DNA of 64,000 bases from Brevibacillus brevis (GTDB taxonomy: Bacteria > Bacillota > Bacilli > Brevibacillales > Brevibacillaceae): assembly GCF_022026395.1 (NCBI RefSeq), contig NZ_CP041767.1, positions 1,871,501-1,935,500 on the forward strand, in the 5' to 3' direction. Position 1 is the stretch's first letter; each line of letters opens with the position of its first letter. The notes beneath the pieces are model-generated. The model had not been told where the DNA came from, made no database searches, and saw only the letters and a list, made by a program, of their open reading frames with translations. Shown here piece after piece: positions 1 through 25,845 of the stretch. Made by a program: the position numbers and the translations under genes.

Positions 1-457
1 GAGCAATACCGAGAGTGATCCAGTGAGTGTTTCCTTTACCGTTTTTGCTCCCCTCCCTGGTGGGACTCTTTATGAGTACGTTTACGATCAAAACAATCGG
101 ATTAAGGCGATTAAAGAAAATGGCGTAGAATCCGTCACCTTCATTCATGATGAAAATGGAAACATGTTAAAAAGTGTCAAGCATGCAGTGACGCTTCCAC
201 CAAAAGGAACCGTACTACATGTGGATCAGGAGAAGGTGGAGGTACGAGCTGGTAGCACGCGACCGATTAAGGTCACAGCAACACTGGAGGACGGCAGTAC
301 GCTGGATGTAACAACACAAGGCCTTTACTCGGTAGTAGATTCTCGGGTTGGATTTATCGTGAAAGGTGTTGTGCATGGGATGAATCCTGGAACAACAGAG
401 GCCAGGGTGTTTTACGGCGGACAGTTTAAAATAATAACGATTACGGTTGTACCCTAA
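1..457 (+). CDS. C-terminal end of a secreted Ig-like (Big_2/PPC-type) surface protein, 5' partial
   Basis: The frame is open from the left edge (first full codon at base 2), so this is the tail of a larger gene. The residues align closely with a stretch inside the giant subtilase downstream (about 14163-14615). Shared parts are the end of a pre-peptidase-like domain (TNTES..PV.V.FTVFAP), then the YD-repeat-like motif YEYVYDQNNRIKAIKENGVES, then one Big_2-type domain ending at the stop. Unlike the downstream paralogue it stops after this Big_2 domain. A hairpin and the first RHS gene follow within 62 bp, so the two are probably co-transcribed. The role is inferred as a cell-surface or secreted partner of the RHS toxin; no catalytic part lies inside the window. 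Confidence 0.75.
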   Translation, partial: SNTESDPVSVSFTVFAPLPGGTLYEYVYDQNNRIKAIKENGVESVTFIHDENGNMLKSVKHAVTLPPKGTVLHVDQEKVEVRAGSTRPIKVTATLEDGSTLDVTTQGLYSVVDSRVGFIVKGVVHGMNPGTTEARVFYGGQFKIITITVVP

Positions 458-471
458 TCCATGTTCATGCA

Positions 472-497
472 GTCCCCCCGTCGCATCATGGGGGGAC
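472..497 (+). other. Intercistronic G/C hairpin before RHS gene 1
   Basis: GTCCCCCC (472-479) pairs with GGGGGGAC (490-497) around a 10-base loop. There is no T-run after it, so it does not look like an intrinsic terminator. The RBS and start of the RHS gene follow at once. A similar CCCCCTT/AAGGGGG hairpin lies at the same place before the second RHS gene (20011-20030). Roles in mRNA processing or differential stability are inference. Confidence 0.6.
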
Positions 498-519
498 GAA
501 TATCTCTAACGGAGGCATT

Positions 520-3500
520 ATGAAACATTTTTCCATAAAATCACTCATGATCGTTGTGCTTTGCCTTGCATTATGCACGACAATGTTGCCGCTTGGAACG
601 ACGTTCGCAAATGAATCCTCCCCCGTGTCCATCTCTCATGTAACCTCAGGTGAGAAAGCAGTAACACCAGACACGGCAATCGAAGAGATTCAACAATCCA
701 TGGGCGAGTCAATCACCAATGACAAAGGAGAAGTAAAAAATCCAATCGAGTACACGGAAACGGATATTTCTTCGCTTACATGGACGCAGCTAGAGACTGA
801 CACTGTTTTTGACATTCATCGCAGTTTTGACAGAGCATTGTTAAAATTCGCAGCCTATTTCTATTCCGAGCTGCTGCAATTACTAACAGCAGAAGAACAA
901 GAAGAAGTCAAACGTCTTTCCTCTGAGCAGATTATCACCCAATTCGAGAATCTGAGTCAGGAAAGCAAAGACCTCTTGCAGCGGTTAACTCCTCTCGTTT
1001 TATCTAAAATCAATGAATTGAAACAACTGGAAGAACAGATGGAGGTCCAATCCACTACTCCACCCCCGGTAAAATACACCGAAAAGGATCAGGAGTTTCG
1101 TTTTGCTCGTTCAAAAACAGAGCAATCCGTCGATGATCTATACCGTGCTGCGAACCTGGTCGAGCAAGATCTCTACTTGCCAGGAAAGCATGGACTGGAT
1201 CTGGACATAAAACGCAGATACCACTCCCTGAGCAGTAAAATCAGTGCGCCAAGCTGGGATGAGGACTTTTCCAAGAATGAAGCACTGAAGTCCAATGAGA
1301 AATTTGCAACCGGCTGGGATTTTAATATGCCCAGATTGGATATTGTCACCCGGGAGCAGGCCGTAACGGTAAGGGACGACCCCTATAATCCAGGTCAACA
1401 AATTTACTCTACCAAAGTAGACAAAGATCCATCGAGTAATCGGTATTACATTACTTTAGAGGACGGCACATCTTTAGAATACCGGTTCAACAAGTTTGTG
1501 AATTATCCGTATCAAGACATCTTCTTCACGATTGACGATGTGAATCGGAAGTACACGCTGCATTACCGCAATTTGAAGTACGAGTTTGATGTCACGTTGG
1601 GAACGGTCGTCAAATCCAATATTTATGGGGACACGATCAAGTACAACCTGAATAGCGATGGAGAGCCGGTGAGCATAGAAGACAGTGTCGGCCGTTATGT
1701 GGTGCTGAAACGAAAGCAAAACGACACCACGCAGGATTTGATTGTCTACAAAGACAAGACAGAGACCACCGTACTCAAGCACATTCGCTACCATTTTGAA
1801 CGAAAGCTCGCATTGAGCGGTTACCATCAGCTTGTTCGCGTAGAAGTCCTGCCGACAGCAGGGAGCGGAAGCAGCGCATATACAGTGGCCCGGTATGCCT
1901 ATCATGATCCCAAAACAAAGGGCATTGCCTATTTCAATTTAAACAAAAACTATACGCTGGAAAAGCTGCCTACAGATCAAGCCCTACAGGATTCAGCGAA
2001 GTTCTGGGAGTCCGATGTAGCGAAACGCTCGGAAATCGATTACTTGCTCATGCAAGAAGCGTTTTATCCCTTGCAGGGCTTAAAAATCAATTACGATTAC
2101 CGCCCCTATCAATTAGGTCAAACTACCTTCAATGACGGACTCGTACGAATTTTTCAAGACAAGCATGCCTTGAGCTATGTATCCTACCATCCTGTCAATA
2201 AAGTATCGTACAGCTATACACAGAAAACACCGAGCGGTACAAATACGTATAAGCTGGAAAAGAGCTATACAGATAACGGCAATTTCCGTGAGGTATGGAA
2301 GGTGCCAAAGGAAAAGCTGCCCAGATTGAAGAATTTTGCGGATCGACATGGGGATACCATTCATGTCACCGAATCAGAGGCATCCCGTTACACGAAGAAT
2401 TCCATTTACAAGGTCAATCAAGACGGAAATCCTTTGCTGAGAAGTGAGAAAACGACAGGCATTAGTAAAGGCGGAACAAATGTATCTGGCGCGAAGTACC
2501 GGGTCGAGTATAATCCCACTACCTACACGACCTACGCCTACTCCGGGCGGAATACAAAGCCGACGTATCAGTACGTTTTTCTCGAACCGACTTCGTCCGT
2601 TAGCGATCTGGATGTGTACAATCACTACCTGAAAGACCCGAATGTTTCCAAGCGTGCTCAGTATGCTGCCAAGATCAACAATTACGCACAAGAGACGTAT
2701 TTGGAATACAACCATTATGGACAACTGATCAAGCAGATTGCGCCAGACGGGATTATGAGTACATGGACATATGATGAGGTGGCGCTGAATCCATGGGGCT
2801 TCCGGACCTTCTCCGTATTGAAGGCAGCCCGAACGCAATCTACGACAGCATCCGGTGATCCTTACTATTCGAATACCACCTTTGAGTACAACGATCAATA
2901 TTTGCTTCGGAAGGAAACGGAGATCAACTCGTTCCCTGCCAATTTAATCAATACACCCAAGAGTCAATCGGTTGAACGGACCTACGAGTACACAAACAAA
3001 CAGCTTTATTCGATAACGGAGAACTTTGGCGGAGGAAAAACACGGACGCAGACCTTTACCGCTTATGATCAATACGGAATTCAGCCTACGCAGATCGCAC
3101 TCGCCGGAGTGGAGCTGGAAAGCGGAAAATCGGATGTGCTGAATTTTTCCTACGAAATCGATGACAAAGGCCAAATCAAAAGTCAGACCTATCCGAACGG
3201 AAGCAAGGCTACCTATGAATACGATGAGTTAGGAAGACCTCTTTCGGAGACTTTTCATAATCAAGGCGCAAAACGAAGCATTACGTATGTCTATCGGGAC
3301 GGCGAAGCTTCTGGGGCGACGACAGAGGGACCGGGCATCGTGGAGAAAATTGCACCGGATTCATCGAAGCTCATCACCTACTACACCCCATATGGAGATA
3401 CGGCCTATCAAGAGCAGGTAGGCACAACAGGTACGAAACGTCCCTTGGTAGAAAACGAGTTCACGCCGGATGGGTTAGAGGTTAGCCGCATGGTTCCTTT

Positions 3501-5922
3501 TGGGAAGCAGGGGGAAAGCACCTCGTATCTGTATGACTGGGATGGCTTTTTGTATCAAACGACGAATGCACTTGGAACTACCAAGAATCATCGAAACAAT
3601 GCCTACTCGGATGGATCGAAATATTTGCCGCGCTTGACGGAACAAACGCTCTCTCCCAATGGGCTCATCGTAACCACCTATCGCGACTTGTATGGAAGAG
3701 TGGAGAGCACAGAGGAGACGACCCAAAGTGGCAGTCACCATCGCGAGACAAACTATCAGACTGATCGATTCGGGAAAGTAACCCATAAAGAAATCTCTGA
3801 CGGCAAGACTTCCCAAGCGTGGAGTATGCGCTTCGATCATAACGACAATCTCGTATATTTGCAGGACCCGGAAAATAACGTAAACGTGTATGGCTACGAT
3901 ACGCTAGGCAATCTCACCAGTGTTCTGGAAAATGGCACGACTACGGCAGAATATACCTACAATAGTTTGGCATGGAAGCTCTCCGAGAAGAATCCGGAAA
4001 CGAGAGCAGAGACGTACACCTACGATAAAAGCGGTCTTGTGAAGAGCTACAAGGACAAAAACGGCGTCACGTTCAACTACGACTATTCGCCTTTCCATGA
4101 ACTGACGAAAGTTTCTTCTGGTACAGCCTTCTATGAAGAGCGCGTGTACGATCCACAGTCTGGTCTGCTTTTGAGCGAAAATAACCACACAGGAAACTCT
4201 ATCAGCTATGGCTACGATGGATTCCATCGGAAGAATCGCCAGACGATGATGGGCAAAGACTACCAGCTTCTTTATTCAGACAATGACGATTCGGTAGATA
4301 CACTTGTATACCCTGCACGAAGTGCGGTATCTGGTTCTGCCCCATCTCTTAGTGTCGGGTACACCTATGACAACGCGAACAGATTGAATTCGGTGGCGAT
4401 TCCAGGAGTCGGAACGACCACGTACACGTACGATATCAGCAACACAGGTGAAACCAATGCTGTATCGTATCCGGGACAACCGACAGCGATGCAGCAATCG
4501 GTCAGCTCATTCGGTGAAAAAACAGCCTTGAATCACGCAGACGGCTGGAACGAGACTAATGGCTACGATCTGTTTGGCAATATCACTAGTCAAAAGCGCT
4601 CCGGTACGAATTATGGATTGTTTGTGTACGACAAGCTTTCCCGGATCAAGGAAGAATCGGTGGAAGGAAACGTTAAGCAGTATGCCTATGATAAGCGCGG
4701 CAACCGCCAAGTGTATGCCAATGCTCCTGGTAATATCTTAAGCTCCTATGAAATGAAGCACGATTTATTTAATCGTTTGCAGGAGTATAAGGACGAGAAA
4801 GGGACGACGACGTACACGTATTATCCAGGTGGACTGCGGGCGACGAAGCAACAGACTGGTAGTGTGACGGATACGACCAATTACGTTTACCTGAATGGGC
4901 AAGTCATTGAAGAGCTCACGCAGGATGGCAGGGTCAAAGCGCGGAATGTGTTTGGTAACCAGTTGATTTGGAGGAAAGACTACGCGGCGAATCTTGAAGG
5001 TACCTACTATTACAACAGCCACGGGGATGTTGTTAAGCTCAAAGACCCGAACGGCAACGTCCTGAATACGTATGACTATGACATTTGGGGTAACTTGATC
5101 GCGGATAAGGTCAAGGAGACGATGTCTAGCCCGTTTACGTATGCGGGGGAGATGTTTGACAAGGAGAGCGGGTTTTACTACCTGCGTGCCCGGTATTATG
5201 ATCCGAAGATAGGGAGGTTTATCTCGGAGGATACGTATAAAGGGCAAGTGGATAATCCATTGTCGATGAATCGGTATACGTATACGCATAATAATCCGTT
5301 GAGGTTTGTTGATCCGAGCGGACATGATGCCATAGAAGGAACCGGTGGAACTGGTGAGGAACGTAATTGGTGGCAGAAGATGATGGATTATGCTGACGCC
5401 CATCGAGCACAATTTGACAGTTTATCTCCTAAGGAACAAGCTGATGAATTAATGCCACTTGGAATAAACTTTGGCATGTCTGGCAAAATCCTAAGCAGTT
5501 CGACCAAAGTTGTTTCTAGCAATTCTTTAAGAAGAATTGGTATAGATATTTTGGATAAAATGGAAAAATCGGGTGGTCACCTGGTAGCTAAGCATGTATC
5601 AATGACTAACCAAGAGCTTATAAAAAGAGCGATTCAAGAAGGGGTCGATGCTACTAGTTTTTATAGCAAATCTCATGCAACATTAGCAATTCAAGAAAAT
5701 TTAAGAAATAATGCAGATAACATCGTAAATTGGCTGGCTGATCAGAATTCGCGAGTTACAACAGTTTTTGAGTTCACACATAAGTATCCTGTTGGGAAAG
5801 GGGCTATAGAAGCAACGAAGAAAATTCAAGACGGTTTAAGGAGTAGTAGGGTTGTATTAGTGAAAGATTCTTCTATGGAGTACGGATTTAGAATATTGAC
5901 AGGGTTCCCAATATTTAAGTGA
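520..5922 (+). CDS. RHS/YD-repeat polymorphic toxin with C-terminal RNase A-like domain
   Basis: This is an 1800-residue secreted RHS protein, WapA-like in plan. It has a signal peptide (about 1-31, ending TTFANES), a non-repeat N-terminal part, and many YD repeats (for example YTYDKSGLVKSYKDKNG) across about 770-1530. The RHS core-end motif (YLRARYYDPKIGRFISEDT... RFVDPSGHD) lies near residues 1545-1605. Beyond it the sequence is AT-rich and unlike the second RHS copy. The last 120 residues resemble the bacterial RNase A-like CdiA-CT family: GGH (H1687), KHV (H1692), R1703, and a terminal ILTGFP (T1794, F1796). ATG at 520 has GGAGG at good spacing. By analogy with WapA/CdiA it should be exported, shielded by the RHS shell, and kill neighbours by cleaving RNA. 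Fold and target are inferred from motif spacing. Confidence 0.85.
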   Translation: MKHFSIKSLMIVVLCLALCTTMLPLGTTFANESSPVSISHVTSGEKAVTPDTAIEEIQQSMGESITNDKGEVKNPIEYTETDISSLTWTQLETDTVFDIHRSFDRALLKFAAYFYSELLQLLTAEEQEEVKRLSSEQIITQFENLSQESKDLLQRLTPLVLSKINELKQLEEQMEVQSTTPPPVKYTEKDQEFRFARSKTEQSVDDLYRAANLVEQDLYLPGKHGLDLDIKRRYHSLSSKISAPSWDEDFSKNEALKSNEKFATGWDFNMPRLDIVTREQAVTVRDDPYNPGQQIYSTKVDKDPSSNRYYITLEDGTSLEYRFNKFVNYPYQDIFFTIDDVNRKYTLHYRNLKYEFDVTLGTVVKSNIYGDTIKYNLNSDGEPVSIEDSVGRYVVLKRKQNDTTQDLIVYKDKTETTVLKHIRYHFERKLALSGYHQLVRVEVLPTAGSGSSAYTVARYAYHDPKTKGIAYFNLNKNYTLEKLPTDQALQDSAKFWESDVAKRSEIDYLLMQEAFYPLQGLKINYDYRPYQLGQTTFNDGLVRIFQDKHALSYVSYHPVNKVSYSYTQKTPSGTNTYKLEKSYTDNGNFREVWKVPKEKLPRLKNFADRHGDTIHVTESEASRYTKNSIYKVNQDGNPLLRSEKTTGISKGGTNVSGAKYRVEYNPTTYTTYAYSGRNTKPTYQYVFLEPTSSVSDLDVYNHYLKDPNVSKRAQYAAKINNYAQETYLEYNHYGQLIKQIAPDGIMSTWTYDEVALNPWGFRTFSVLKAARTQSTTASGDPYYSNTTFEYNDQYLLRKETEINSFPANLINTPKSQSVERTYEYTNKQLYSITENFGGGKTRTQTFTAYDQYGIQPTQIALAGVELESGKSDVLNFSYEIDDKGQIKSQTYPNGSKATYEYDELGRPLSETFHNQGAKRSITYVYRDGEASGATTEGPGIVEKIAPDSSKLITYYTPYGDTAYQEQVGTTGTKRPLVENEFTPDGLEVSRMVPFGKQGESTSYLYDWDGFLYQTTNALGTTKNHRNNAYSDGSKYLPRLTEQTLSPNGLIVTTYRDLYGRVESTEETTQSGSHHRETNYQTDRFGKVTHKEISDGKTSQAWSMRFDHNDNLVYLQDPENNVNVYGYDTLGNLTSVLENGTTTAEYTYNSLAWKLSEKNPETRAETYTYDKSGLVKSYKDKNGVTFNYDYSPFHELTKVSSGTAFYEERVYDPQSGLLLSENNHTGNSISYGYDGFHRKNRQTMMGKDYQLLYSDNDDSVDTLVYPARSAVSGSAPSLSVGYTYDNANRLNSVAIPGVGTTTYTYDISNTGETNAVSYPGQPTAMQQSVSSFGEKTALNHADGWNETNGYDLFGNITSQKRSGTNYGLFVYDKLSRIKEESVEGNVKQYAYDKRGNRQVYANAPGNILSSYEMKHDLFNRLQEYKDEKGTTTYTYYPGGLRATKQQTGSVTDTTNYVYLNGQVIEELTQDGRVKARNVFGNQLIWRKDYAANLEGTYYYNSHGDVVKLKDPNGNVLNTYDYDIWGNLIADKVKETMSSPFTYAGEMFDKESGFYYLRARYYDPKIGRFISEDTYKGQVDNPLSMNRYTYTHNNPLRFVDPSGHDAIEGTGGTGEERNWWQKMMDYADAHRAQFDSLSPKEQADELMPLGINFGMSGKILSSSTKVVSSNSLRRIGIDILDKMEKSGGHLVAKHVSMTNQELIKRAIQEGVDATSFYSKSHATLAIQENLRNNADNIVNWLADQNSRVTTVFEFTHKYPVGKGAIEATKKIQDGLRSSRVVLVKDSSMEYGFRILTGFPIFK

Positions 5923-5939: not shown

Positions 5940-6212
5940 ATGTCAGCACAAACTTTCGAATATTTTAAGCATTTTTTGGAGTGTTATTTTAACATTTCAG
6001 CTGATTACTCTGATTTGAAAGATTTACTTAGTTTTTATAAAAGTACTGAATCCGAAAAAACTAGAATAGAGCTGTTAGGTGAAATTAATACATTAATTGA
6101 CGCGGATGAATGGACATATGCCCATAGTTTGATTAAGGAACACGGAATGAGGAATATGAAGCACGAAAACATAATAGAAATGTTGTTATTAATGAGAGAT
6201 ATGTTGAAATAA
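5940..6212 (+). CDS. Probable CdiI-type immunity protein for the RNase A-like toxin
   Basis: This 90-residue, acidic, helical protein is encoded directly after the RHS toxin. An in-frame GTG at 5919 overlaps the RHS stop, but GAGGAGG at 5928-5934 sits five bases before ATG 5940, so I chose that start. The pattern (aromatic-rich N-terminus with YF, then LLGEINTLIDADE and a C-terminal LLLMRDML helix) resembles the contact-dependent inhibition immunity family CdiI_2. Tight linkage to the toxin tip and low G+C support an immunity role. The family assignment is from memory of the pattern and moderately sure; the immunity role by position is stronger. Confidence 0.65.
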   Translation: MSAQTFEYFKHFLECYFNISADYSDLKDLLSFYKSTESEKTRIELLGEINTLIDADEWTYAHSLIKEHGMRNMKHENIIEMLLLMRDMLK

Positions 6213-6860: not shown

Positions 6861-9800
6861 ATGAACCCTAGATTCATCCGCTCAATCAGTCGTTTCAATG
6901 TATTCCTACTGCTAGCTTTATTGTTTTTGCAACTTATCCCAGAGCACGCTATCGCAAGCGCTAGTAGTAAAACGTATTTAATTGGTTTTAAAGAAAGCAA
7001 GAAAACAAAAGTGAGGGCGATTCAAAGATCATCTGTCCAGCAACTTAGCACGAAAGTGATGGTTGCTCAATTAACAGAGAGTGAAATGGAGGTAATGTCT
7101 CAGGACGAGAATGTAGCCTATATTGAGGAAGATAGTGAAATAGAGTTAGCAGAAACAAACAGAACAGAAAAGCAGGAAATTCCGTGGGGGATTGAGCACA
7201 TAGGGGCAAATCAAGCTCACGAAAAAAATTACAAAGGCCAAAACATCAAAATTGGAATTATTGATACAGGTATATCCAATCATGAAGACCTCCAAGTAAA
7301 AGGAGGCATTTCCTATGTAGAAGGAAAATCAGATTTTGATGATGAGCACGGGCATGGAACTGCGGTGGCTGGTGTTATCGCTGGTAAAGATAATGATGTT
7401 GGAATTGTTGGTGTTGCGCCAGAAGCTGAAATCTATGCCATCAGAGTCCTTGATGAAAAAGGTCACGGTACATATTCCAGCATGATTCAGGGGATTGAAT
7501 GGGCGATACAGAATGACATGAACATCGTTTCCATTAGTGCTGGTGGTAGAATTGACAGTCAAGCGCTACACGACCAGATAAAAAGAGCGAATCAACAAGG
7601 GATACTGGTTATTGCAGCAGCAGGCAATCGAGGAATGGGTGAGGATACCCAGTTGTATCCTGCGAAATATGCTGAGACATTGTCCGTCGGTGCGATAAAT
7701 CAGGACAATCAACGGGCTGACTTTTCAAGTGTTGGCAGTGGGTTAGACCTGATGGCTCCTGGCGTTGATATTCTAAGTACGTCTCTCCATGGAGACTATG
7801 AGCAACGTTCAGGCACTTCTTTAGCAGCTCCTCACGTAACCGGTGCAGCAGCTGTTATTTGGTCGAAAAAGGGTGGAGCCACCAATCGCGAAGTGCGTGA
7901 TAGTTTAGTCGAGAACGCAACACCTTTAGGGGAATCACGTTTTTACGGAAAAGGGCTTGTAAACCTAGAGAAAGCGCTGGGACTAGGGGATGAGGACTCC
8001 GCAGAGATTACCTCACTGGAATCGACGCCGAACGAATTGCGACTTTCCGAAGGTGAAAATTATCAACTGAAGATTACGGCGAACATGACAGATGGCAACA
8101 CCAGAGATGTCAGCAAAGAAGTTACGTATACGAGCAAAGATGAAAAAATTGCTACGGTTACATCTTCAGGGTTCGTCACAGGAAGTGGAATAGGAGATAC
8201 GCAACTGATCGCTGAGTTGGGTGACAAGACGATTGAGATTCCGATAGTCGTGACGAAGAGAGCTCCTTTGATACCAATAGGGGGGCTCGACACCCCCGAA
8301 AAAGGCGAGTTAATCAGTGGTACGTATACCATTAAAGGATGGTATCTCCATCCAGACGGGGTATCGAAAATCAGTATCCTGATTGATGGTACGAATGTGG
8401 GAGAGGCATCTTATGGCGACCCGAGACCAGATGTTGAAGCGAAATATCCAGCTTATCAGAATAGCAGTGCTGGATTTCACTATCAACTGGACACTGGGAA
8501 TTTAACGGCAGGCACACATAGCATTACGGTGGAAGTTCAAGATACGAATGGACAACAAACCGTCATTGATGGAACGACATTTTACATTGGTGACGTGGAG
8601 CCGTTGAATGGTCTGCATGCTGATGTAACCAAGCTGGAACTAACGAATGAAGGTTCGCATCAGTTGGTGGTATCTACTGTTTTAGAAGATAACACCCTGA
8701 AAGACGTTACAAGTCTTGCAGAGTACGCTTCATCAGATGAAAGTGTCGTAACAGTAGACGCTGCTGGGGTTGTAAAAGCAATGGGGGATGGAACGGCGAT
8801 TGTGACCATTCGATATGATGGTCAATCAATCACGATCCCCGTTACGATCAAAAAGAATGAGCCACTGATACCGCGTTGGGAGTTAGAGGCGCCAACAAGT
8901 AATTCCATGATGACTGGCGTCACACTCATCAAAGGCTGGTACCTGGATCCATCAGGTGTTTCCAAGATAGAGGTTCATTTGGATGGAACAGTAGTGGGGG
9001 AGGCTTCTTATGGGCATACCCGACCTGATATTGAATCCTCGTATCCACAATACCAGAATGCTAAAGCCGGATATGAGTACCGTTTAGACACAACACAGCT
9101 AATGGAAGGGCAGCATTCGATCAAGGTAACGGCTGTTAATAAAGACGGCGCTGAACAAGTTCTGGCAGAGCGAGCTGTTTTCATCGGTCGTGCTGAACCG
9201 GCAACAAGTATTGTGGCAAATATAAGCAAGGTAGATTTGATACAAGGGAATACACAGCAATTATCCATTTCTGCTGTTTTACTGAATCAACAAACGAAAG
9301 ATGTGACGAGAGAGGCTCAATACACGATTGAGAATCCTGCGATCATTAGCCTTTCAGATAAAGGTATCGTTACGGGAATTGAAATCGGTCAAACCAATAT
9401 CATCGTGAAATACCAGGAACAAACGCTTACGATACCTGTTTGGGTCAAAGCAGCAGGGGCTCTGGCTCGGGGAGGCATTGACAGTCCCGCGGAAAATGCA
9501 TTAATCAGCGGTGTTTACCCTGTCACAGGCTGGTTTATTGACTCTACTGGTGTTGAAAAGATTGAAGTACTGGTCGATGGAGCCGTAAGTGGCGAAGCAA
9601 CCTATGGCATTTCTCGTCCGGAAATAGAAATTATGGATGCTTCCAAACCGGATGGAAACGTAGGGTTCCACTATAATCTCGATACAGGGAAATTGCGGGA
9701 AGGCACACATACTCTTTCTGTTAGAGGAACAGGCAAGGGTGGAAATCAGGTAATGCTGGGGAACAGAACGATTCAAGTCGTTACCTTGCTACCAGCAATC

Positions 9801-18800: not shown

Positions 18801-18989
18801 ACAATCACGGTCCCAGTGGAAGTCAAGGAGATCGAAGTGAAAGCCAATCGCTTGACCGCAGGTGGAGCACATACGTTGATGGTGAAAGAAGACGGAAGTG
18901 TATGGGCATGGGGACAAAACGCGAAGGGGCAGCTAGGAGATGGAACGGCACAAAATAGCACAGTTCCAGTATTAACGAATGATAAATAA
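6861..18989 (+). CDS. Giant secreted subtilisin-family serine protease with Big_2, FN3, PPC-like and RCC1 repeats
   Basis: The product has 4042 residues; ATG 6861 has AAGGAG eight bases upstream. Signal peptide about 1-34; I9-type propeptide about 37-95; S8 peptidase about 108-360 with catalytic D135 (IDTG), H165 (HGHGT) and S320 (GTSLAAPH), all present, so it should be active. Then six units of about 198 residues (8005-11570), each a Big_2 domain plus a module with GW(Y/F)L..P.GV.KIEVL.DG; a jelly-roll-like region (11580-12055); Ig/cadherin-like regions; FN3 (13365-13610); a PPC-like region (13620-14210); a YD-repeat-like motif (14231-14350); six Big_2 domains; and the 138-residue RCC1+Big_2 array from 15951. 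It lacks an obvious sortase motif or SLH domain. It may mature or anchor the RHS toxins encoded nearby; that is inference. Length is far beyond usual subtilases. Confidence 0.88.
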   Translation: MNPRFIRSISRFNVFLLLALLFLQLIPEHAIASASSKTYLIGFKESKKTKVRAIQRSSVQQLSTKVMVAQLTESEMEVMSQDENVAYIEEDSEIELAETNRTEKQEIPWGIEHIGANQAHEKNYKGQNIKIGIIDTGISNHEDLQVKGGISYVEGKSDFDDEHGHGTAVAGVIAGKDNDVGIVGVAPEAEIYAIRVLDEKGHGTYSSMIQGIEWAIQNDMNIVSISAGGRIDSQALHDQIKRANQQGILVIAAAGNRGMGEDTQLYPAKYAETLSVGAINQDNQRADFSSVGSGLDLMAPGVDILSTSLHGDYEQRSGTSLAAPHVTGAAAVIWSKKGGATNREVRDSLVENATPLGESRFYGKGLVNLEKALGLGDEDSAEITSLESTPNELRLSEGENYQLKITANMTDGNTRDVSKEVTYTSKDEKIATVTSSGFVTGSGIGDTQLIAELGDKTIEIPIVVTKRAPLIPIGGLDTPEKGELISGTYTIKGWYLHPDGVSKISILIDGTNVGEASYGDPRPDVEAKYPAYQNSSAGFHYQLDTGNLTAGTHSITVEVQDTNGQQTVIDGTTFYIGDVEPLNGLHADVTKLELTNEGSHQLVVSTVLEDNTLKDVTSLAEYASSDESVVTVDAAGVVKAMGDGTAIVTIRYDGQSITIPVTIKKNEPLIPRWELEAPTSNSMMTGVTLIKGWYLDPSGVSKIEVHLDGTVVGEASYGHTRPDIESSYPQYQNAKAGYEYRLDTTQLMEGQHSIKVTAVNKDGAEQVLAERAVFIGRAEPATSIVANISKVDLIQGNTQQLSISAVLLNQQTKDVTREAQYTIENPAIISLSDKGIVTGIEIGQTNIIVKYQEQTLTIPVWVKAAGALARGGIDSPAENALISGVYPVTGWFIDSTGVEKIEVLVDGAVSGEATYGISRPEIEIMDASKPDGNVGFHYNLDTGKLREGTHTLSVRGTGKGGNQVMLGNRTIQVVTLLPAIGLKANVTEVIVPQAKTHQMTVMAVLEDQSSQDVTKLALYNIENSSVAKVSTDGLVTALAQGRTSLTVKYGDQSISIPITVTEAEALKTLGEIETPVNGATVNGTYTISGWFLHPSAISDYQVVIDGIEHGKAKSGIARPDIALLHPEYTNTQAGYSYTVDLNELQPGNHTVSVIATDSEGKQHPLPEKSFVVGKNAPAISLQNTEPTISVAKDAMQKLQITASFEGQQSRDITGEAVYTVEDPNVVYVSPLGIVTGLKVGMTKIQVNYGNQSLMIPVVVTESEAGSLVAKGQMDIPKEGTVIGGTTTIQGWILNPSGVSKIEVLVDGQLQGTAVYGGPRPDILAMYPLYQNANAGFQYLLDTSLFAEGNHKLTIKVTDKAGAESLLLESNIIIGPVTGITANYSEVTLEKDKSVAFTVVASYRDKSTKDVTGEVTYTIDNPSIAKIDATGLLTGLSSGSTVLTVSYAGIVKQYPVTVKGDVLVTGGAIDTPQDNELISRNYNMTGWFVSSGEVEKIEVLMDGDKLGEAKYGLERPDLKRKYPDAPHLKPGFSYLLEVDQMQVGEHQLQVLVTEKDGKQTSMEKTITIVEPIHDTYAFWLQFSNQQGQNNWSYQEVSGDRFTDLEWDKAAEEWKSNQNETAIGNTWIKVGSSDPILKWKAPRSGRIHVSGWISKIQVEEGDGVNVRLLKNDAQIWPSSGWQSIDFNDEIGVEIQEELSIEEGDALIFQVNQKENNIGDLLKWTPEITYITTEVNDNSAPQVYLTSPVVGKAVTTVNSEDVIVISGIAMDPNIGDQVHIWYQLDEEDPHELTRFTASESANEFSYNLPIGNLKPDHLYSLRVWAVDQKSSKSLVEKVDISLDMRAQAEKDPITISANWKYPKDRAEIPKGQSITLDWDYYNGKGYPSYIASQELIIYISEGGHVTSTKREKLTGTARSYVFDTSYIQKNALIDVRLKAIMKSDAPKILEGSTAKLEFYLLATNQAPVVVNTELVIMDSGRTGLINYSLRDNDVSDKIVSTKLRVGLTPGGNELGEKQEPISESNQNGNESGRYFFPITKEMLYQTVYWTVQAQDNRGAWTTPTNYTSRLVDALPKIVIYTPGAKRVMDIDETFTLEGVYTHLQAGDVISGRMNRLKNPQEFTTTGSSGQWSLSWRGRDLGEGTYPNIEVSNRGGFVAVYPGSLTIEKKPDAPNNISVEADTNSLKVFWSPVVGATDYGIQVDGGGIKRIGNVSNHTITGLQPATVYTIRLWAYNSSGTSSYGSGSITVQTKPAESNFNLLVEYNPVRMHFPTNQAKYFKITAKTSGVYQFTLNNDSGLAADANISVYKGAGLLDHEEISSGSNGRVNPVFAAGKTYYVKIVGKSEFYATLLAKPGGEAFVFNQPNDITIPGGQTVEIAMNVIFPGKYRMVTQLKNPSQKYPAVTVYSNGVQVSPREKPSAAEVIYDLAAGAYTIKLTNTESNPVNVLFTVFAPAAGGTVYEYVYDQNNRIKAIKENGVESVIFYHDENGNITKSVKQNASTPQKAKALSLDLEKVNVSPGNSKSIKVMATLDNGSQVDVSAQAVYVVEDPSVAYINKGIVYAVNGGTTRARLYFGGQSKTLTITVDAPSVHLTSISLTPGQSTITEGQIQRLYASAYYSDGNSKDISSVASFDTSNSSVAQVSSQGVVTGIKAGTATITVSYDGKSASSQITVQGATIQEVKGTPVQVSLVAGGTQQLSVTATYSNGAEENISKQAVYSSSNANVASVDSGGLITALSPGATQVTVSYGGQSTIIPVTVAGNAISLVSLAVTPATVSIGKGASQQLEVKAIYSDNSQTIVTNQATYQSSQPAIASVGAGGSVTGVAVGSSTVTITFGGKVVTVPVQVTETQEPVQSLSVTPVSLNILVGKTQQLQVTATYKDGKNMDVSGQAVYLPGDATVVTVDANGVVTAVKAGSTNITVSFGGASVVVPVVVTAEIPVQNIKVVPEDITLQEGTTQQLNVLLKLADGTEVDVADKSLFTMADPSIASVSASGLLTGIKDGITSVTIDYLGTKVNANVKVAQVLKEDKLKRLSAGGAHTLMVKEDGSVWAWGQNEKGQLGDGTIQDRTTPVESMLVISAQQLVASPSTVLLPISQSKPLQITATYANNSTQDVTTQSTYESSNPAVATVDAAGVITSVSVGTANITVSYYNKTITVPVEVRETEVKVNRLSAGGAHTLMVKEDGSVWAWGQNEKGQLGDGTVQNRTTPIESMLVISAQQLVASPGTVLLPTSQSKPLQITATYPNNSTQDVTTQSTYESSNPAVATVDAAGVITAVSVGTANITVSYYNQTITVPVEVRETDVKANRLSAGGAHTLMVKEDGSVWAWGQNEKGQLGDGTVQNRTTPIESMLVISAQQLVASPGTVLLPTSQSKPLQITATYPNNSTQDVTTQSMYESSNTAVATVDAAGVITAVSVGTANITVSYYNQTITVPVEVRETEVKANRLSAGGAHTLMVKEDGSVWAWGQNEKGQLGDGTVQNRTTPIESMLVISAQQLVASPGTVLLPTSQSKPLQITATYPNNSTQDVTTQSMYESSNTAVATVDAAGVITAVSVGTANITVSYYNKTITVPVEVRETEVKANRLSAGGAHTLMVKEDGSVWAWGQNEKGQLGDGTVQNRTTPIESMLVISAQQLVASPGTVLLPTSQSKPLQITATYPNNSTQDVTTQSTYESSNPAVATVDAAGVITAISVGTANITVSYYNKTITVPVEVRETEVKANRLSAGGAHTLMVKEDGSVWAWGQNEKGQLGDGTVQNRTTPIESMLVISAQQLVASPSTVLLPTSQSKPLQITATYPNNSTQDVTTQSRYESSNPAVATVDATGVITAVSVGTANITVSYYNKTITVPVEVRETEVKANRLSAGGAHTLMVKEDGSVWAWGQNEKGQLGDGTVQNRTTPIESMLVISAKELVASPSRVLLPTSQSKPLQITATYPNNSTQDVTTQSRYESSNPTVATVDATGVITAVSVGTTSIIVSYYNKTITVPVEVKEIEVKANRLTAGGAHTLMVKEDGSVWAWGQNAKGQLGDGTAQNSTVPVLTNDK
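8005..11570 (+). repeat. Six diverged in-gene units of about 595 bp (Big_2 + GW-type Ig module)
   Basis: Within the subtilase gene, six units follow one another. The second halves carry the recurring pattern P..G..I.G.Y.I.GW.L.P.GV.KIEVL.DG, then a segment ending in Y.LDT..L..G.H. Starts of these second halves lie near 8267, 8860, 9457, 10055, 10655 and 11240. The units differ a lot in DNA, so the duplication is old, unlike the downstream 414-bp array. Confidence 0.75.
15951..18986 (+). repeat. Tandem 414-bp array encoding RCC1 blade + Big_2 domain, 7 full units and a partial eighth
   Basis: Unit starts, set by the codons for RLSAGGAHTL, fall at 15951, 16365, 16779, 17193, 17607, 18021, 18435 and 18849, an exact 414-bp (138-codon) period. 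Each unit has one RCC1 blade (HTLMVKEDGSVWAWGQNEKGQLGDGT) followed by a Big_2 domain (LVASP...TVPVEV). Units are nearly identical in DNA, and units 3 and 4 match without visible change for about 370 bases, showing recent duplication or homogenisation. The eighth unit stops after its RCC1 blade at the end of the gene. Confidence 0.92.
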
Positions 18990-19995: not shown

Positions 19996-20010
19996 TATTT
20001 ACTAGTAAAT

Positions 20011-20030: not shown

Positions 20031-20053
20031 ACAACATTTCTTTCGGAGGCAAT

Positions 20054-23000
20054 ATGAAACTCCTGTCGACAAAATCAACCCTGATTTTTATATTAAGTCT
20101 TTCCCTATTTACGACGATGATACCACCAGTGAGTACCCTGGCAAATGAACCGTCAATCCAAGAATTATCAAATACACAAAGTATAGAATCATCAACTCCA
20201 AACGAGACAATAGATGAAATCCAGAATTCCATCGCAGAGCAAAATCTCAACCCTTTACCAGAAAAAAGAGAAGCAAAAAATCCCGCATCATATAACGCCG
20301 CGGACATCGCTTCACTAACATGGACTCAGCTGGATGCAAACACAGCAATCGAAATCCACCAAACATTCGACCGAACCTTACTAAAATACGCTGCCTATTT
20401 CTATCCAGATCTATTGCAGCTACTTTCAACAGAAGAACACTCAGAAGTAAATGCTTTTTCCAGTGACCAGCTCATCTCTCAATTCGATCATCTCAGTCAG
20501 GAAAATAAGGCCCTCTTAAATCGCCTTACACCCCTTGTAGCATCGAAAGTAAATGAACTCAAGAGTCTGGAAGAAACACTCGACATTCAAGCAGTGAATA
20601 CAACTCCTCCAGAAGTTCTCTACACAGAAAAAGATCAGGAGTTTCGCTTTGCTCGTTCAAAAACAGAGCAATCCGTAGATGATGTATATCGCTCTGCAAA
20701 CTTGGTCGAGCAAGATCTCTACTTACCAGGAAAGCATGGACTGGATCTGGATATAAAACGCCGATATCACTCCCTGAGCAGTAAAATCAGTGTACCAAGC
20801 TGGGACGATGATCTAGACAAGAATGAAGCCTTAAAGGCCAATGAGAAATTTGCAACAGGCTGGGATTTTAATATGCCGAGACTGGATATCGTCACGCGTG
20901 AGCAGGCAGCCACGGTAAGGGACGACCCCTATAATCCAGGCCAGCAAATTTACTCCACCAAGGTAGACAAGAGTCCAACGGCGAATCGTTATTACATTAG
21001 CTTAGAGGACGGGACATCTTTAGAATACCGGTTCAACAAGTTTGTGAATTATCCATATAAGGACATTATGTTCATCACGGACGACGTGAATCGGAAGTAC
21101 ACGCTGCATTACCGTAATCTGAAGTATGAATTTGATGTCAAGCTGGGAACAGTCGTCAAATCCAATATTTATGGAGACACGATCAAGTACAACCTGAATA
21201 GCGACGGAGAGCCAGTCAGCATCGAAGACAGTGTCGGCCGCTATGTGGTGCTAAAACGAAAGCAAAACGACACCACACAAGATTTGATAGTCTATAAAGA
21301 CAAATCAGAGACTACCGTGCTCAAGCACATTCGCTACCACTTTGAACGAAAGCTAGCATTGAACGGTTACTTTCAGCTCGTTCGAGTAGAAGTCCTGCCG
21401 ACAGCAGGGAGTGGGAGCGGTTCTTATACAGTAGCAAATTATTCCTATCATAATCCTACTACCAAGGGTATTGCTTATTTCAATTTGAACAAGGAATACA
21501 CACTGGACAAGCTCCCTACCGATCAAAGCCTTCAAGATTCAGCAAAGTATTGGGAATCGGATACAAAGAAGCGTAAGGAAATCGATTACTTGCTCATGCA
21601 AGAAGTTTCCTATCCGCTGCAAGGATTAAAAATCAACTACGAATATCGTCCCTATCAACTAGGTCAAACGACGTTTAATGACGGTCTCGTACGGATTTTT
21701 CAAGACAAGTATGCACTAAGCTATGTAGCCTATCATCCTGTTAATAAAGTATCGTACAGCTATACGCAGAAAACGCCAAAAGGAACCAATACGTATAAGC
21801 TCGAAAAGAACTATGCCAATAACGACAACCTCCACGAGATATGGAAGGTACCAAAGGAACAACTGCCCAGATTGAAGAATTTTGCGGAACGTCATGGGGA
21901 TACCATCCAGGTCACCGAATCTGAGGCTTCCCGTTACACGAAGAATTCCATTTACAAGGTCAATCAAGACGGAAATACGTTGCTGCGAAGCGAGAAGACA
22001 ACAGGCGTGAGCAAAGGCGGAACAAATGTATCTGGCGCGAAGTATCGGGTCGAGTACAATCCAACTACGTACACAACCTATGCCTATTCCGGCCGGAATA
22101 CAAAGCCGACGTATCAATACGTTTTCCTGGAACCGACATCGGCAGTGAGCGATCTGGATGTTTACAATTCCTACTTGAAAGACCCGAACCTATCCAATCG
22201 ATCACGGTATGCGGCCAAGATCAACAATTACGCACAAGAGACGTATTTGGAATATAACGATTACGGACAGCTAACCAAGCAGATTGCACCGGACGGGATT
22301 GTAAGTACATGGACATATGATGCAGAAGGGGTAAATCCATGGGGCTTCCGTACCTTCTCCGTATTGAAGGCAGCCAGAACGCAATCAACCTCCGCCTCGG
22401 GCGATCCGTATTATTCGAATACGACATTCGAGTACAACAATCAATATTTGCTCCGGAAGGAAACGGAGATCAACTCGTTCCCTGCCAATTTGATCAATAA
22501 TCACAAGAGCCAATCGGTTGAACGGACATATGAGTACACCAATAACCAGCTCTACTCGATTACGGAAAACTTTGGCGCAGGAAAGACAAGGACGCAGACC
22601 TTTACCGCTTATGATCAATATGGCGTTCAGCCAACACAAATCGCACTCGCAGGTGTTGAGCTGGAAAGCGGCAAATCGGATGTATTGAATTTTTCCTACG
22701 ACATCGATGACAAAGGCCAAATCAAAAGCCAGACCTATCCGAACGGAAGCAAAGCTACATACGATTACGATGAGTTAGGCCGACCGTTATCGGAGACTTT
22801 TCACAATCAAGGCGCAAAACGAACCATAACGTATGTGTATCGGGACGGCGAAGCTTCTGGATCGAGTTCAGAAGGACCGGGCATCGTGGAGAAAATTGCC
22901 CCGGATCAATCGAAGCTGATCACTTACTACACCCCGTATGGAGATACCGCCTATCAAGAGCAGGTGGGCACGACAGGTGCGAAGCGTCCATTGGTAGAAA

Positions 23001-25501
23001 ACGAGTTTACGCCAGATGGCATGGAGATTAGTCGCACGGTTCCTTACGGGAAGCAGGAGCAAAGCACCTCGTACCTGTATGACTGGGACGGTTTTGTGTA
23101 CCAAACGATGAATTCCTTAGGAACCACTAAGAACCATCGAAACAATGCCTACTCGGATAAAACAAGATACTTACCTCGTCTGACGGAACAAACGCTCTCT
23201 CCGAATGGCTATATCGCGACCACCTACCGTGATTTGTATGGAAAAGTGGAGAGCACGGAGGAGACGACGCAAAGCGGCAGTCATCATCGCGTGACGAACT
23301 ACCAGACGGATCGATTCGGGAAAGTAACTAATAAAGAAATCTCAGACGGAAAAACTTCCCAAGCGTGGAGTATGCGCTTCGACCATAACGACAACCTGGT
23401 GTATTTGCAGGACCCTGAAAATAACGTAAATGTATACGGGTACGATGGGCTAGGCAATCTCACCAGTGTATTGGAGAATGGCACGACTACGGCAGAGTAT
23501 ACCTACAATAGTTTGTCGTGGAAGCTCTCGGAGAAGAATCCAGAGACAAGAGCGGAGACGTACACCTACGACAAAAGCGGTCTTGTGAAGAGTTACAAGG
23601 ATAAAAACGGTGTCACATTCAACTACGACTACACGCCTTTCCATGAGTTAAAGAAAGTTTCTTCCGGCGCTTCTTTCTATGAAGACCGCGTGTATGATCC
23701 ACAGTCTGGTCTGCTTTTGAGCGAAAATAATCACACAGGAAACTCTATTAGCTATGGCTATGATGGGTTCCATCGAAAGAATCGCCAAACGATGATGGGC
23801 AAGGACTACCAGCTTCTGTATTCTGATAACGACGATACGATAGATACACTCGTATACCCTGCAAGAAGTGCGGTATCTGGTTCTGCCCCATCTCTAAGTG
23901 TCGGATACACCTATGACAACGCAAACCGATTAAATTCGGTGGCGATCCCGGGAGTGGGAACGACCACATACACGTACGATATCAGCAACACAGGAGAAAC
24001 CAATGCAGTATCGTATCCGGGACAACCGAAAGCGATGCAGCAGTCGGTCAGCTCATTTGGTGAAAAAACAGCCTTGAATCACGCAGACGGCTGGAACGAG
24101 ACAAATGGCTACGATCTGTTTGGCAATATCACTAGTCAAAAGCGCTCCGGTACGAATTATGGATTGTTTGTGTACGACAAGCTTTCCCGGATCAAGGAAG
24201 AATCGGTCGAAGGAAACGTCAAGCAATACGCTTATGACAAACGCGGCAACCGCCAAGTGTATGCAAATGCCCCGGTAGATATCCTGCGCTCCTATGAAAT
24301 GAAGCACGATTTGTTTAATCGTTTGCAGGAGTACAAGGACGAGAAGGGGACGACAACGTACACGTATTATCCAGGTGGATTGCGTGCGACGAAGCAACAG
24401 ACTGGCAGCGTGACGGATACGACTCACTACGTCTATTTGGATGGGCAAGTGATTGAAGAGCTGACGCAGGATGGCAGGGTCAAGGCGAGGAATGTGTTTG
24501 GTAACCAGTTGATCTGGCGAAAAGACTATGCGTCGAATCTTGAAGGTAATTACTATTACAATAGCCATGGTGATGTTGTCAAAATCAAGGCTCCCAATGG
24601 GAATGTTCTAAATACGTACGACTACGACATCTGGGGCAATTTGATTGCGGATAAGGTCAAAGAAACGATTTCCAACCCGTTTATGTATGCGGGGGAGATG
24701 TTTGACAAAGAGAGCGGGTTTTACTACCTGCGTGCTCGGTATTATGATCCGAAGATAGGGCGGTTTATCTCGGAGGATACGTATAAGGGGCAAGTGGATA
24801 ATCCGTTGAGCTTGAATAGGTATACGTATGTAAGTAATAATCCATTGCGGTTTGTCGATCCTAGCGGACACTATCAATGCGAAGGTGCGATTTCTAGTTG
24901 TAATAAAGAAATATCAGGGAATAAATATTACAAAGATCTACGTGATTTAAGCCCTGAAGAACAAGTTCAGATTCTTGAAGATCCGAGGTACTCAGAGTTT
25001 GATAAAGCGAGGGTATCTTTGTTGATGATGGGTAGATCTATTGGTTTGACGTCGCTTTCAGGAGTTTCTAATACTACGAAAGTAGTGAGCACGTCTACTA
25101 CACTAAAATCCACCTATACACCTACTTATAAAGTGAATTTGCAGTACTTCGCTGGAAAAAGAAGTAAGTGGTGGCATCCAGAATATATTGATAATCTATC
25201 TTCAACTGATATTTTATTTGGCGTTAAAAAATCTCGTAAAGGCTTATCAACATTGGGAAGTGCCAAAAGAGCGGACGCTTGGGTTGCTGGAAGAGGTTGG
25301 GTAGGTGTTGACGCTAAGGAGATCGTAGATAATGGAGTGTTAATAGGATACAGCAGTAATGACGGTTTGAGAGCATTTAGATTACAATATAAAAAAGGAG
25401 ATCAAATGTGGCGAGCGAATTTTCAACTAAATACAAATAAAATAGGAAGCACATCTAAAAAGGCTGAAGTATTTAATGTTCACATTGATATATTAGACTA
25501 G
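20054..25501 (+). CDS. RHS/YD-repeat polymorphic toxin with unidentified C-terminal toxin domain
   Basis: This 1815-residue paralogue of the first RHS protein has a signal peptide (about 1-31, ending STLANE), a diverged N-terminal stretch to about 190, then a core nearly identical to copy 1, including the YD repeats and RHS end motif (RFVDPSGH near residue 1605). After the core the two proteins share nothing obvious. Here a linker with a VNLQYFAGK pre-toxin motif (from V1694), frequent in Gram-positive polymorphic toxins, precedes a basic, aromatic domain of about 115 residues (KWWHPEYIDNLSS...WVAGRGWVGVDAKEI...FNVHIDILD). I do not recognise its family; a nuclease is possible but no catalytic motif is clear. 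ATG 20054 has GGAGG upstream. An Imm8-like gene follows by 11 bp. Confidence 0.85.
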   Translation: MKLLSTKSTLIFILSLSLFTTMIPPVSTLANEPSIQELSNTQSIESSTPNETIDEIQNSIAEQNLNPLPEKREAKNPASYNAADIASLTWTQLDANTAIEIHQTFDRTLLKYAAYFYPDLLQLLSTEEHSEVNAFSSDQLISQFDHLSQENKALLNRLTPLVASKVNELKSLEETLDIQAVNTTPPEVLYTEKDQEFRFARSKTEQSVDDVYRSANLVEQDLYLPGKHGLDLDIKRRYHSLSSKISVPSWDDDLDKNEALKANEKFATGWDFNMPRLDIVTREQAATVRDDPYNPGQQIYSTKVDKSPTANRYYISLEDGTSLEYRFNKFVNYPYKDIMFITDDVNRKYTLHYRNLKYEFDVKLGTVVKSNIYGDTIKYNLNSDGEPVSIEDSVGRYVVLKRKQNDTTQDLIVYKDKSETTVLKHIRYHFERKLALNGYFQLVRVEVLPTAGSGSGSYTVANYSYHNPTTKGIAYFNLNKEYTLDKLPTDQSLQDSAKYWESDTKKRKEIDYLLMQEVSYPLQGLKINYEYRPYQLGQTTFNDGLVRIFQDKYALSYVAYHPVNKVSYSYTQKTPKGTNTYKLEKNYANNDNLHEIWKVPKEQLPRLKNFAERHGDTIQVTESEASRYTKNSIYKVNQDGNTLLRSEKTTGVSKGGTNVSGAKYRVEYNPTTYTTYAYSGRNTKPTYQYVFLEPTSAVSDLDVYNSYLKDPNLSNRSRYAAKINNYAQETYLEYNDYGQLTKQIAPDGIVSTWTYDAEGVNPWGFRTFSVLKAARTQSTSASGDPYYSNTTFEYNNQYLLRKETEINSFPANLINNHKSQSVERTYEYTNNQLYSITENFGAGKTRTQTFTAYDQYGVQPTQIALAGVELESGKSDVLNFSYDIDDKGQIKSQTYPNGSKATYDYDELGRPLSETFHNQGAKRTITYVYRDGEASGSSSEGPGIVEKIAPDQSKLITYYTPYGDTAYQEQVGTTGAKRPLVENEFTPDGMEISRTVPYGKQEQSTSYLYDWDGFVYQTMNSLGTTKNHRNNAYSDKTRYLPRLTEQTLSPNGYIATTYRDLYGKVESTEETTQSGSHHRVTNYQTDRFGKVTNKEISDGKTSQAWSMRFDHNDNLVYLQDPENNVNVYGYDGLGNLTSVLENGTTTAEYTYNSLSWKLSEKNPETRAETYTYDKSGLVKSYKDKNGVTFNYDYTPFHELKKVSSGASFYEDRVYDPQSGLLLSENNHTGNSISYGYDGFHRKNRQTMMGKDYQLLYSDNDDTIDTLVYPARSAVSGSAPSLSVGYTYDNANRLNSVAIPGVGTTTYTYDISNTGETNAVSYPGQPKAMQQSVSSFGEKTALNHADGWNETNGYDLFGNITSQKRSGTNYGLFVYDKLSRIKEESVEGNVKQYAYDKRGNRQVYANAPVDILRSYEMKHDLFNRLQEYKDEKGTTTYTYYPGGLRATKQQTGSVTDTTHYVYLDGQVIEELTQDGRVKARNVFGNQLIWRKDYASNLEGNYYYNSHGDVVKIKAPNGNVLNTYDYDIWGNLIADKVKETISNPFMYAGEMFDKESGFYYLRARYYDPKIGRFISEDTYKGQVDNPLSLNRYTYVSNNPLRFVDPSGHYQCEGAISSCNKEISGNKYYKDLRDLSPEEQVQILEDPRYSEFDKARVSLLMMGRSIGLTSLSGVSNTTKVVSTSTTLKSTYTPTYKVNLQYFAGKRSKWWHPEYIDNLSSTDILFGVKKSRKGLSTLGSAKRADAWVAGRGWVGVDAKEIVDNGVLIGYSSNDGLRAFRLQYKKGDQMWRANFQLNTNKIGSTSKKAEVFNVHIDILD

Positions 25502-25512
25502 GAGGGCTGTGG

Positions 25513-25845
25513 ATGCTTGTAGTTAAATCATTGATACAATCTTATGAAGATTGGGGTACTGACATAGATGATTTTTATATATCTTTTGAAGTTGATATAG
25601 GTTGTAAAGATATCATTGGATCAGCCGATATGTTTACTTTTGAGGTGGTGAGTCCAAAAAGATTAAGTAAAATTGTGTCAGATAGTAATATTGAGATTGG
25701 TAGAGGCTATCTAATTATGAATGACTTTAATATTAACCAAGTACAGCAGGTTGTGAATAATATCGTAAAAAAGTGTCAAAATGAAGATTATAATTTGGCG
25801 ATGAAGGATATTTCAAAATATTTTAGATGGCAGATGGATAATTAA
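25513..25845 (+). CDS. Imm8-like immunity protein
   Basis: A 110-residue protein starting 11 bp after the second RHS gene, with AGGAGGG upstream of ATG 25513. The pattern (F.ISFEVDIG...ADMFTFEVVSPKRL...GRGYLIMNDFNINQVQQVVNNIV...KYFRWQMD) fits the Imm8 family, which has an IG.....D.F...V.SP..L core and a terminal aromatic W segment. It has no signal peptide and so should act in the cytoplasm against the incoming toxin tip. Low G+C matches the toxin tip. Family from pattern memory; immunity role from position. Confidence 0.7.
   Translation: MLVVKSLIQSYEDWGTDIDDFYISFEVDIGCKDIIGSADMFTFEVVSPKRLSKIVSDSNIEIGRGYLIMNDFNINQVQQVVNNIVKKCQNEDYNLAMKDISKYFRWQMDN

What the first reader, a model, noticed from the sequence alone, without database searches (positions are those of the whole stretch)
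1..25845. Two parallel surface-protein/RHS-toxin modules built on one plan
The order [Ig/PPC protein with YD-like motif]-[G/C hairpin]-[RHS core]-[AT-rich toxin tip]-[immunity] occurs twice in succession. The tail of the first Ig protein is homologous to the middle of the second, and the RHS cores are nearly identical, but the tips differ. This points to duplication of the whole module followed by tip exchange. The second module gained a protease and RCC1 parts, so the Ig proteins may be working partners of the RHS toxins rather than neighbours by chance.
Basis: partly seen in the sequence, partly recalled or inferred. Interest (0 to 1): 0.75.

Follow-up and report, generated by a model that had tools for sequence, protein, structure and literature searches.

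The report
Secreted hook partners of RHS toxins
Beside most of the RHS toxin genes of one exported type that were examined in Brevibacillus, Paenibacillus and relatives lies a gene for a second protein, predicted to be secreted too, that carries one short piece of the toxin's own repeat and likely docks onto the toxin's shell, which would explain how such toxins are put together or tethered; searches of an open-access paper library found no report of it.

Summary
The repeated plan is real, but its constant part is a small element. Both modules pair a shell-type RHS toxin with an upstream protein carrying one two-unit YD segment (the hook). Module 1's complete partner (2587 aa) has the subtilase too, so module 2 did not gain a protease; it has a longer Ig/RCC1 tail and a free RCC1 gene. 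Of 39 genomes of the family, 28 have this RHS class and the same 28 have the hook. Of 40 strong hooks there, 38 precede such an RHS gene and 2 run into contig ends. In a second family the hook sits at either end or inside the partner, or is nearly the whole protein (70-87 aa), and one RHS gene can follow a row of seven hook ORFs. Of 89 RHS genes examined, 77 have a hook partner; 12 do not (4 at contig edges, 2 broken, 6 apparently intact). Between the two modules the hook (88-90% identical) is conserved while the rest of the partner is not (45-70%). Best reading: a co-secreted subunit that docks on the RHS shell through the hook. Docking itself is untested. New variant of RHS polymorphic toxins.

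The parts
1..457 (+). C-terminal 151 codons of the module-1 hook partner (2587 aa; S8 protease, Big repeats, fn3, hook, one more Ig-like stretch)
   Evidence: ORF; complete gene L007:11194-18957; Pfam
62..184 (+). hook of module 1 (two YD units, YEYVYDQNNRIKAIKENG...DENGN)
   Evidence: G000:C1:1871562-1871684, 77.5 bits
472..497 (+). G/C hairpin between partner and RHS gene, before GGAGG
520..5922 (+). RHS toxin 1 (1800 aa): likely signal peptide, helical N-domain about 80-175, beta shell from about 186 to 1603, tip RNAse_A_bac 1686-1797
   Evidence: model of residues 31-1200
5940..6212 (+). putative immunity gene, weak CdiI_2 match (23.5 bits, below the 26.7 cut-off); ORF listed from 5919, ATG at 5940
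6861..18989 (+). module-2 hook partner (4042 aa): S8 126-365, Big repeats, fn3 2168-2239, hook 2456-2496, Big repeats, RCC1/Big tail
14223..14348 (+). hook of module 2
   Evidence: G000:C1:1885723-1885848, 71 bits
19006..19995 (+). RCC1-type protein (329 aa), likely secreted
   Evidence: same gene order in L040, L044, L045, L048, L050, L051 and, cut by a contig edge, L049
20010..20031 (+). G/C hairpin before RHS gene 2
20054..25501 (+). RHS toxin 2 (1815 aa), same plan, tip without a Pfam match
25513..25845 (+). Imm8-family immunity gene
   Evidence: 66.1 bits, cut-off 27

Best explanation
Each module encodes a pair of proteins, both predicted to be secreted: a shell-type RHS toxin and an upstream partner carrying one conserved two-unit YD segment (the hook), and the hook likely docks onto the RHS shell by adding its predicted four strands to an exposed shell edge, which would cap or stabilise the shell and tether whatever domains the partner carries. 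Shown: gene linkage, the hook's independence of its position and of the rest of the partner, near hook-only proteins (one pair with low dN/dS), and conservation of the hook alongside the shell. Predicted: signal peptides, strand content of the hook, the shell fold. Inferred and untested: physical binding, its site, and that the fused domains (carbohydrate-binding, Ig, RCC1, subtilase) hold the toxin at a surface or process it. Hook-only partners suggest that the hook does something by itself, so capping or assembly is put before tethering.
For: 28 of 39 family genomes have the RHS class and exactly those 28 have the hook; 11 have neither. 38 of 40 hooks over 60 bits have such an RHS gene downstream on the same strand; 2 run into contig ends, 23 and 2349 bases away. 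Of 89 RHS genes examined 76 have a same-strand upstream hook ORF and 1 a divergent one; median gap of the nearest 48 bp over 77 rows, one later set aside. The 12-row hook model scores 29-75 bits in 42 partner ORFs of the first set and at most 23.4 bits in RHS ORFs. The hook is N-terminal, internal or C-terminal in different partners. ORFs of 70, 82, 84 and 87 aa are little more than a hydrophobic leader and the hook; the pair L149/L166 (101 and 82 aa) has dN 0.059, dS 0.81. Module 1 vs 2 in four genomes: hook 88-90%, shell 91-92%, partner body 67-70%, tail 45-49%, RHS N-domain 56-59%. Hook dS is high (1.36-2.64 in three genomes), so its likeness is not recent conversion. In 24 aligned C-end-hook rows (one a duplicate, some near-identical) 7 of 9 invariant columns lie in the hook. 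AlphaFold gives the hook of the third module four strands, 10-residue means 79-90 from residue 581 on, after a linker with residues below 50 (whole model only 73.1). The RHS model matches solved RHS shells.
Against: No complex was modelled or measured. Six apparently intact RHS genes lack a hook partner in the stretch held (L129, L135, L136, L138, L142, L150; L136 is short, 1593 aa), so it is not universal, and no hook above 8 bits was seen in their first 260 residues. Two hook genes in G1123 have no RHS gene in the roughly 15 kb downstream that were fetched. In the family survey 5 further hits of 31-41 bits have no such RHS gene downstream: 4 lie in ORFs of 1907-2040 aa, 1 in a 200-aa ORF, none looked at further. 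Within the partner the hook is among the least changed stretches but not the least: 20-33 of 354 windows have equal or lower pN in four comparisons. The wider hook model was trained on these loci, so its scores there are partly circular, and four partners score only 11-19 bits. Genomes are related, so counts are not independent.
Confidence: 0.55

Rival explanations
1. The hook is a transient assembly factor: a secreted beta-template that nucleates folding of the RHS spiral outside the membrane and is then released, so the partner is a chaperone and not a subunit.
For: Near hook-only proteins of 70-87 aa; the hook gene mostly precedes the RHS gene on the same strand, so it would be made first; the RHS chain would be exported unfolded by Sec (inference).
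Against: Does not explain why many partners are huge multidomain proteins (up to 4042 aa) nor a row of seven hook ORFs before one RHS gene.
Confidence: 0.2
2. The partners are independent surface proteins; linkage reflects co-inheritance on the same islands or co-regulation, and the YD pair has its own unrelated role.
For: Partner domains (S8, Big, RCC1, CBM) are common in cell-surface proteins (recalled; domains). Two hook genes of G1123 lie away from any RHS gene in the stretch fetched.
Against: The one element shared by otherwise different partners is a piece of the RHS repeat, and hook-bearing and RHS-bearing genomes coincide 28 of 28. Two plasmid relatives of P0006 whose matches stop before the hook have no RHS-named gene within 8-9 kb in a gene table that is incomplete.
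Confidence: 0.1
3. The hook is a relic or recombination tract: a fragment of an RHS gene left by rearrangement, or a homology arm for swapping partners.
For: RHS loci do shed fragments: displaced core pieces score 39-48 bits with the wider model in L048, L068 (two), L070, L076, L134; shells were homogenised between modules.
Against: Those fragments carry a different YD pair (YYYNSHGDVV-type). Hooks are conserved at protein level with dS 1.36-2.64, differ in place (N-end, middle, C-end) between partners, and occur straight after hydrophobic leaders.
Confidence: 0.07

Closest known systems
Gram-positive RHS/WapA polymorphic toxins (S. suis, compared there with B. subtilis; PMC12704120)
   Same: Signal sequence, RHS shell, variable C-terminal toxin, adjacent immunity gene.
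   Different: S. suis WapA carries its LysM wall-binding part in cis and uses upstream SecF-like and SrtB genes (passages read); here the RHS proteins show no such domain by Pfam and the surface-type domains are on a separate hook protein.
Bacterial teneurin-like proteins (TLP; PMC13018210, PDB 9ifo)
   Same: YD shell with toxin cargo, also in Bacillota; adhesion and Ig domains in the N-terminal part; structural match of our model.
   Different: TLPs are single chains with TIP, FN-plug and NHL parts; here no NHL match, and the Ig part is a second protein joined, we propose, through a hook.
Tc (ABC) toxins, TcdB2-TccC3 (PDB 4o9x, 6suq)
   Same: RHS cocoon with toxin cargo, more than one chain; a beta-propeller is part of the BC complex (recalled), and RCC1 proteins recur as hook partners here.
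   Different: No Tc-type family in the module genes by Pfam; the shell here is one chain; the hook is only about 40 residues.
MafA/MafB of Neisseria (PMC3482391, passage read)
   Same: A polymorphic toxin gene regularly preceded by a gene for a secreted surface protein.
   Different: MafA is described as one non-polymorphic lipid-anchored family; hook partners share only the hook, and it resembles the toxin's own repeat.

Membership tests
RHS polymorphic toxins | YD/RHS repeats with RHS-associated core ending in a DPxG motif | tested here: met
   PF05593 1.5e-24 and 9.8e-25, TIGR03696 2.4e-22 and 3.4e-23; DPSGH in sequence
RHS polymorphic toxins | variable C-terminal toxin with downstream immunity gene | tested here: met
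   Tips 14% identical, shells 91%; RNAse_A_bac tip, Imm8 gene, weak CdiI_2 below cut-off
RHS polymorphic toxins | shell fold like solved RHS proteins | tested here: met
   model of residues 31-1200, pLDDT 84.5; Foldseek E about 1e-27 to 8qjc, 8qja, 7q97; TM-scores low, about 0.15-0.43
Bacterial teneurin-like proteins | NHL propeller and FN-plug in the same chain as the YD shell | tested here: not met
   No NHL or other propeller family in P0001, P0004, P0007 by Pfam; the paper's own HMMs were not available and FN-plug was not tested
Tc (ABC) toxin | TcA-type translocation subunit encoded nearby | tested here: inconclusive
   No such Pfam family in the module genes; the other genes of the window and flanks were not annotated
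WapA | wall-binding domain in cis at the RHS N-terminus | tested here: not met
   No Pfam match before the repeats in P0001, P0004, P0007; residues about 80-175 of P0001 modelled as a helix bundle
Split shell or docking subunit | hook binds the RHS shell | not testable with these tools
   no multimer prediction or binding assay available

The most novel reading that the evidence does not exclude
The hook is a detachable piece of the RHS shell made as a separate protein: a trans-acting shell cap and universal socket. Any domain, or none, can be fused to it, and a row of different hook genes before one RHS gene (seven in one genome) would give a single toxin a choice of co-secreted partners, a dockerin-like plug-in system for encapsulated toxins.
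Probability: 0.35. Interest if true: 0.85.

Novelty: new variant of a known kind. Interest (0 to 1): 0.72.

Why it matters
How teneurin-like toxins of bacteria are delivered and released from the shell without an obvious delivery machine is stated to be open (PMC13018210, discussion read). A conserved co-encoded partner that shares a piece of the shell repeat gives a concrete, testable second component for the related secreted RHS toxins, offers a reason why large Ig, RCC1, CBM or subtilase proteins sit in front of them, and gives a 40-residue signature for finding partners, some of which are now named only hypothetical protein.

Tried and rejected
Gain of a protease by module 2: rejected, module 1 has it. 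Hairpins as terminators: no T-run, and they lie before a Shine-Dalgarno-like GGAGG; 0 Rfam matches at gathering threshold in 1-30000; role left open. A5 in 398 class genomes at E 1e-15 gave no hit outside the family and would have misled; the Paenibacillus hit L101 and lower thresholds showed the second family. The 15 distant RHS loci L141-L155 were fetched as negative controls (my choice, spaced through about 100 weak matches), but 13 of 15 had hooks too; L142 and L150 remain as hook-less contrasts. Hook in cis in hook-less RHS: none above 8 bits in the first 260 residues. PADLOC: no match for 6 proteins. Foldseek of the partner model gave collagen-binding-domain and other beta-sandwich matches, uninformative for the hook.

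Rows set aside: 90 RHS-like ORFs were listed; L085 is a 70-aa fragment whose 'hook' is a displaced RHS core piece, so counts use 89 (77 of 90 became 76 of 89). L132 was moved from 'none' to 'divergent'. L083 and L084 may be two ends of one gene.

Papers: PMC13018210 (outline, results part 1 of 3, discussion, passages), PMC12704120, PMC3482391 and PMC7020563 (passages); others seen in listings only. 'No report' rests in the held open-access library only; no preprints are held.

Full report
What is in the window. The window is G000:C1:1871501-1935500 of a single 6.156-Mb contig. Bases 1-457 end a gene that starts 7307 bases upstream (L007:11194-18957, 2587 aa). It is followed by a hairpin, RHS toxin 1 (520-5922) with an RNAse_A_bac tip, and a weakly CdiI_2-like gene. 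Module 2 follows: a 4042-aa protein (6861-18989), a 329-aa RCC1 protein, a hairpin, RHS toxin 2 (20054-25501) and an Imm8 gene. Both large proteins have Peptidase_S8 and Ig-like repeats and carry one YD pair, YEYVYDQNNRIKAIKENGVESV.F.HDENGN. A third pair elsewhere in the genome is a 642-aa protein that ends in one YD pair, 16 bp before an RHS gene. A fourth RHS protein (P0008) is of another class, with a Phage_GPD match.

The rule. I searched an RHS N-terminal alignment and, separately, a 12-row alignment of the YD pair (the hook) against all 39 genomes held of the family. RHS: 49 matches in 28 genomes. Hook: the same 28 genomes. Of 40 hooks above 60 bits 38 lie on the same strand upstream of such an RHS gene and 2 run into contig ends (23 and 2349 bases away). 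Of 49 RHS matches 41 have a hook over 30 bits upstream; of the 8 others 3 are at contig edges, 2 are broken or fragments, and 3 have a diverged hook upstream (11-36 bits with the wider model). Five further hits of 31-41 bits have no such RHS gene downstream; 4 are in ORFs of 1907-2040 aa and 1 in a 200-aa ORF, not followed up. In the fetched loci the 12-row model scores 29-75 bits in 42 partner ORFs and at most 23.4 bits in RHS ORFs; one partner scores 13.6.

Beyond the family. In 394 genomes of a second family, to which Paenibacillus gallinarum (L101) belongs, 93 have a match to the wider RHS alignment. I fetched the 25 strongest besides L101 (one of them partial) and 15 of about 100 weaker ones. 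Together with the first family 89 RHS genes were examined (less L085): 76 have a same-strand upstream hook ORF, 1 a divergent one (L132), 12 none: 4 at contig edges (L049, L074, L084, L140), 2 broken (L082, L130), 6 apparently intact (L129, L135, L136, L138, L142, L150). Nearest hooks in the second family are N-terminal in 16, C-terminal in 10 and internal in 6 partners. In 19 chosen hook proteins Pfam finds S8, RCC1, CBM_4_9, CBM96, fn3, Big and, weakly, F5/8C domains; 8 show at most the RHS repeat. Some are little more than a hydrophobic leader and the hook: L155 70 aa, L166 82, L158 84, L159 87; L149 against L166 gives dN 0.059, dS 0.81. G309 has rows of hook ORFs before each of two RHS genes, seven (19-41 bits) in one row and four in the other. 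One locus of a third family (G168, f36, L165) shows the same pair. A whole-genome look in 20 genomes of the second family found 24 hooks of 40 bits or more in ORFs under 1500 aa: by my reading of the list 20 have an RHS-type ORF downstream on the same strand within about 11 kb, 2 are divergent beside one, 2 (G1123) have none in the stretch fetched.

History of the two modules. Both types occur together in four of the genomes compared (G000, G007, G012, G013), so the duplication is older than these species. Module 1 against module 2 within a genome: partner body 67-70%, hook 88-90%, partner tail 45-49%, RHS N-domain 56-59%, shell 91-92%, tip 10-14% (65% in G013). In three of them dS is 1.57-1.75 in the partner, 1.36-2.64 in the hook, 1.56-1.87 in the RHS N-domain, but 0.44-0.54 in the shell. 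So the shells were homogenised later, while the hook stayed similar by selection on the protein.

Mechanism. The hook is the only part shared by the partners, it is a piece of the RHS repeat, it tracks the RHS gene, and it can be nearly the whole protein. AlphaFold gives the third module's hook four strands, with 10-residue means of 79-90 from residue 581 on, behind a poorly predicted linker (mean of the whole model 73.1), and the module-1 RHS N-terminal 1170 residues a fold matching solved RHS proteins. The simplest mechanism is docking of the hook on the shell, with capping or assembly as the basic function and tethering of fused domains as the elaboration. Binding, site and consequence are inferred.

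Limits. No complex was modelled. Six apparently intact RHS genes lack a hook. Genomes are related, so counts are not independent events. The hook is not the most conserved stretch of the partner (20-33 of 354 windows equal or lower pN). The wider hook model was trained on these loci. Signal peptides were judged by eye and a crude hydrophobicity score. Literature was searched only in the held open-access library.

Noticed in passing
L163, L164 (G309:C1:1499500-1535500): Two RHS genes each behind a row of hook ORFs, seven in one row and four in the other.
   Followed up: partly
472-497 and 20010-20031: C/G hairpin without T-run shortly before the RHS start, kept in all 14 intergenic regions of the two module types looked at, with arm changes that keep pairing; not seen before the third RHS gene or in L055, L061, L116.
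   Followed up: partly
15906-18986: Tail of the 4042-aa partner is a run of near-identical RCC1-blade plus Big_2 units; partners of this type are 3227 to 4042 aa long in different loci, suggesting unit gain and loss.
   Followed up: no
610-1074 (P0001 residues 31-185): RHS N-domain, partly modelled as a helix bundle, is module-specific (56% identical) beside 91% identical shells; it may be the partner-specific part.
   Followed up: partly
L142, L150: A hook-less RHS type with its own similar upstream set (1103-1104, 314-333 and 264-280 aa), perhaps a different partner system.
   Followed up: no
25955-26995: MrpR-like recombinase gene (PF22822, PF22823) straight after module 2.
   Followed up: no
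L009:9303-15341: Fourth RHS protein of the genome, with Phage_GPD and DUF6531 matches, another delivery class.
   Followed up: no
   Followed up: no
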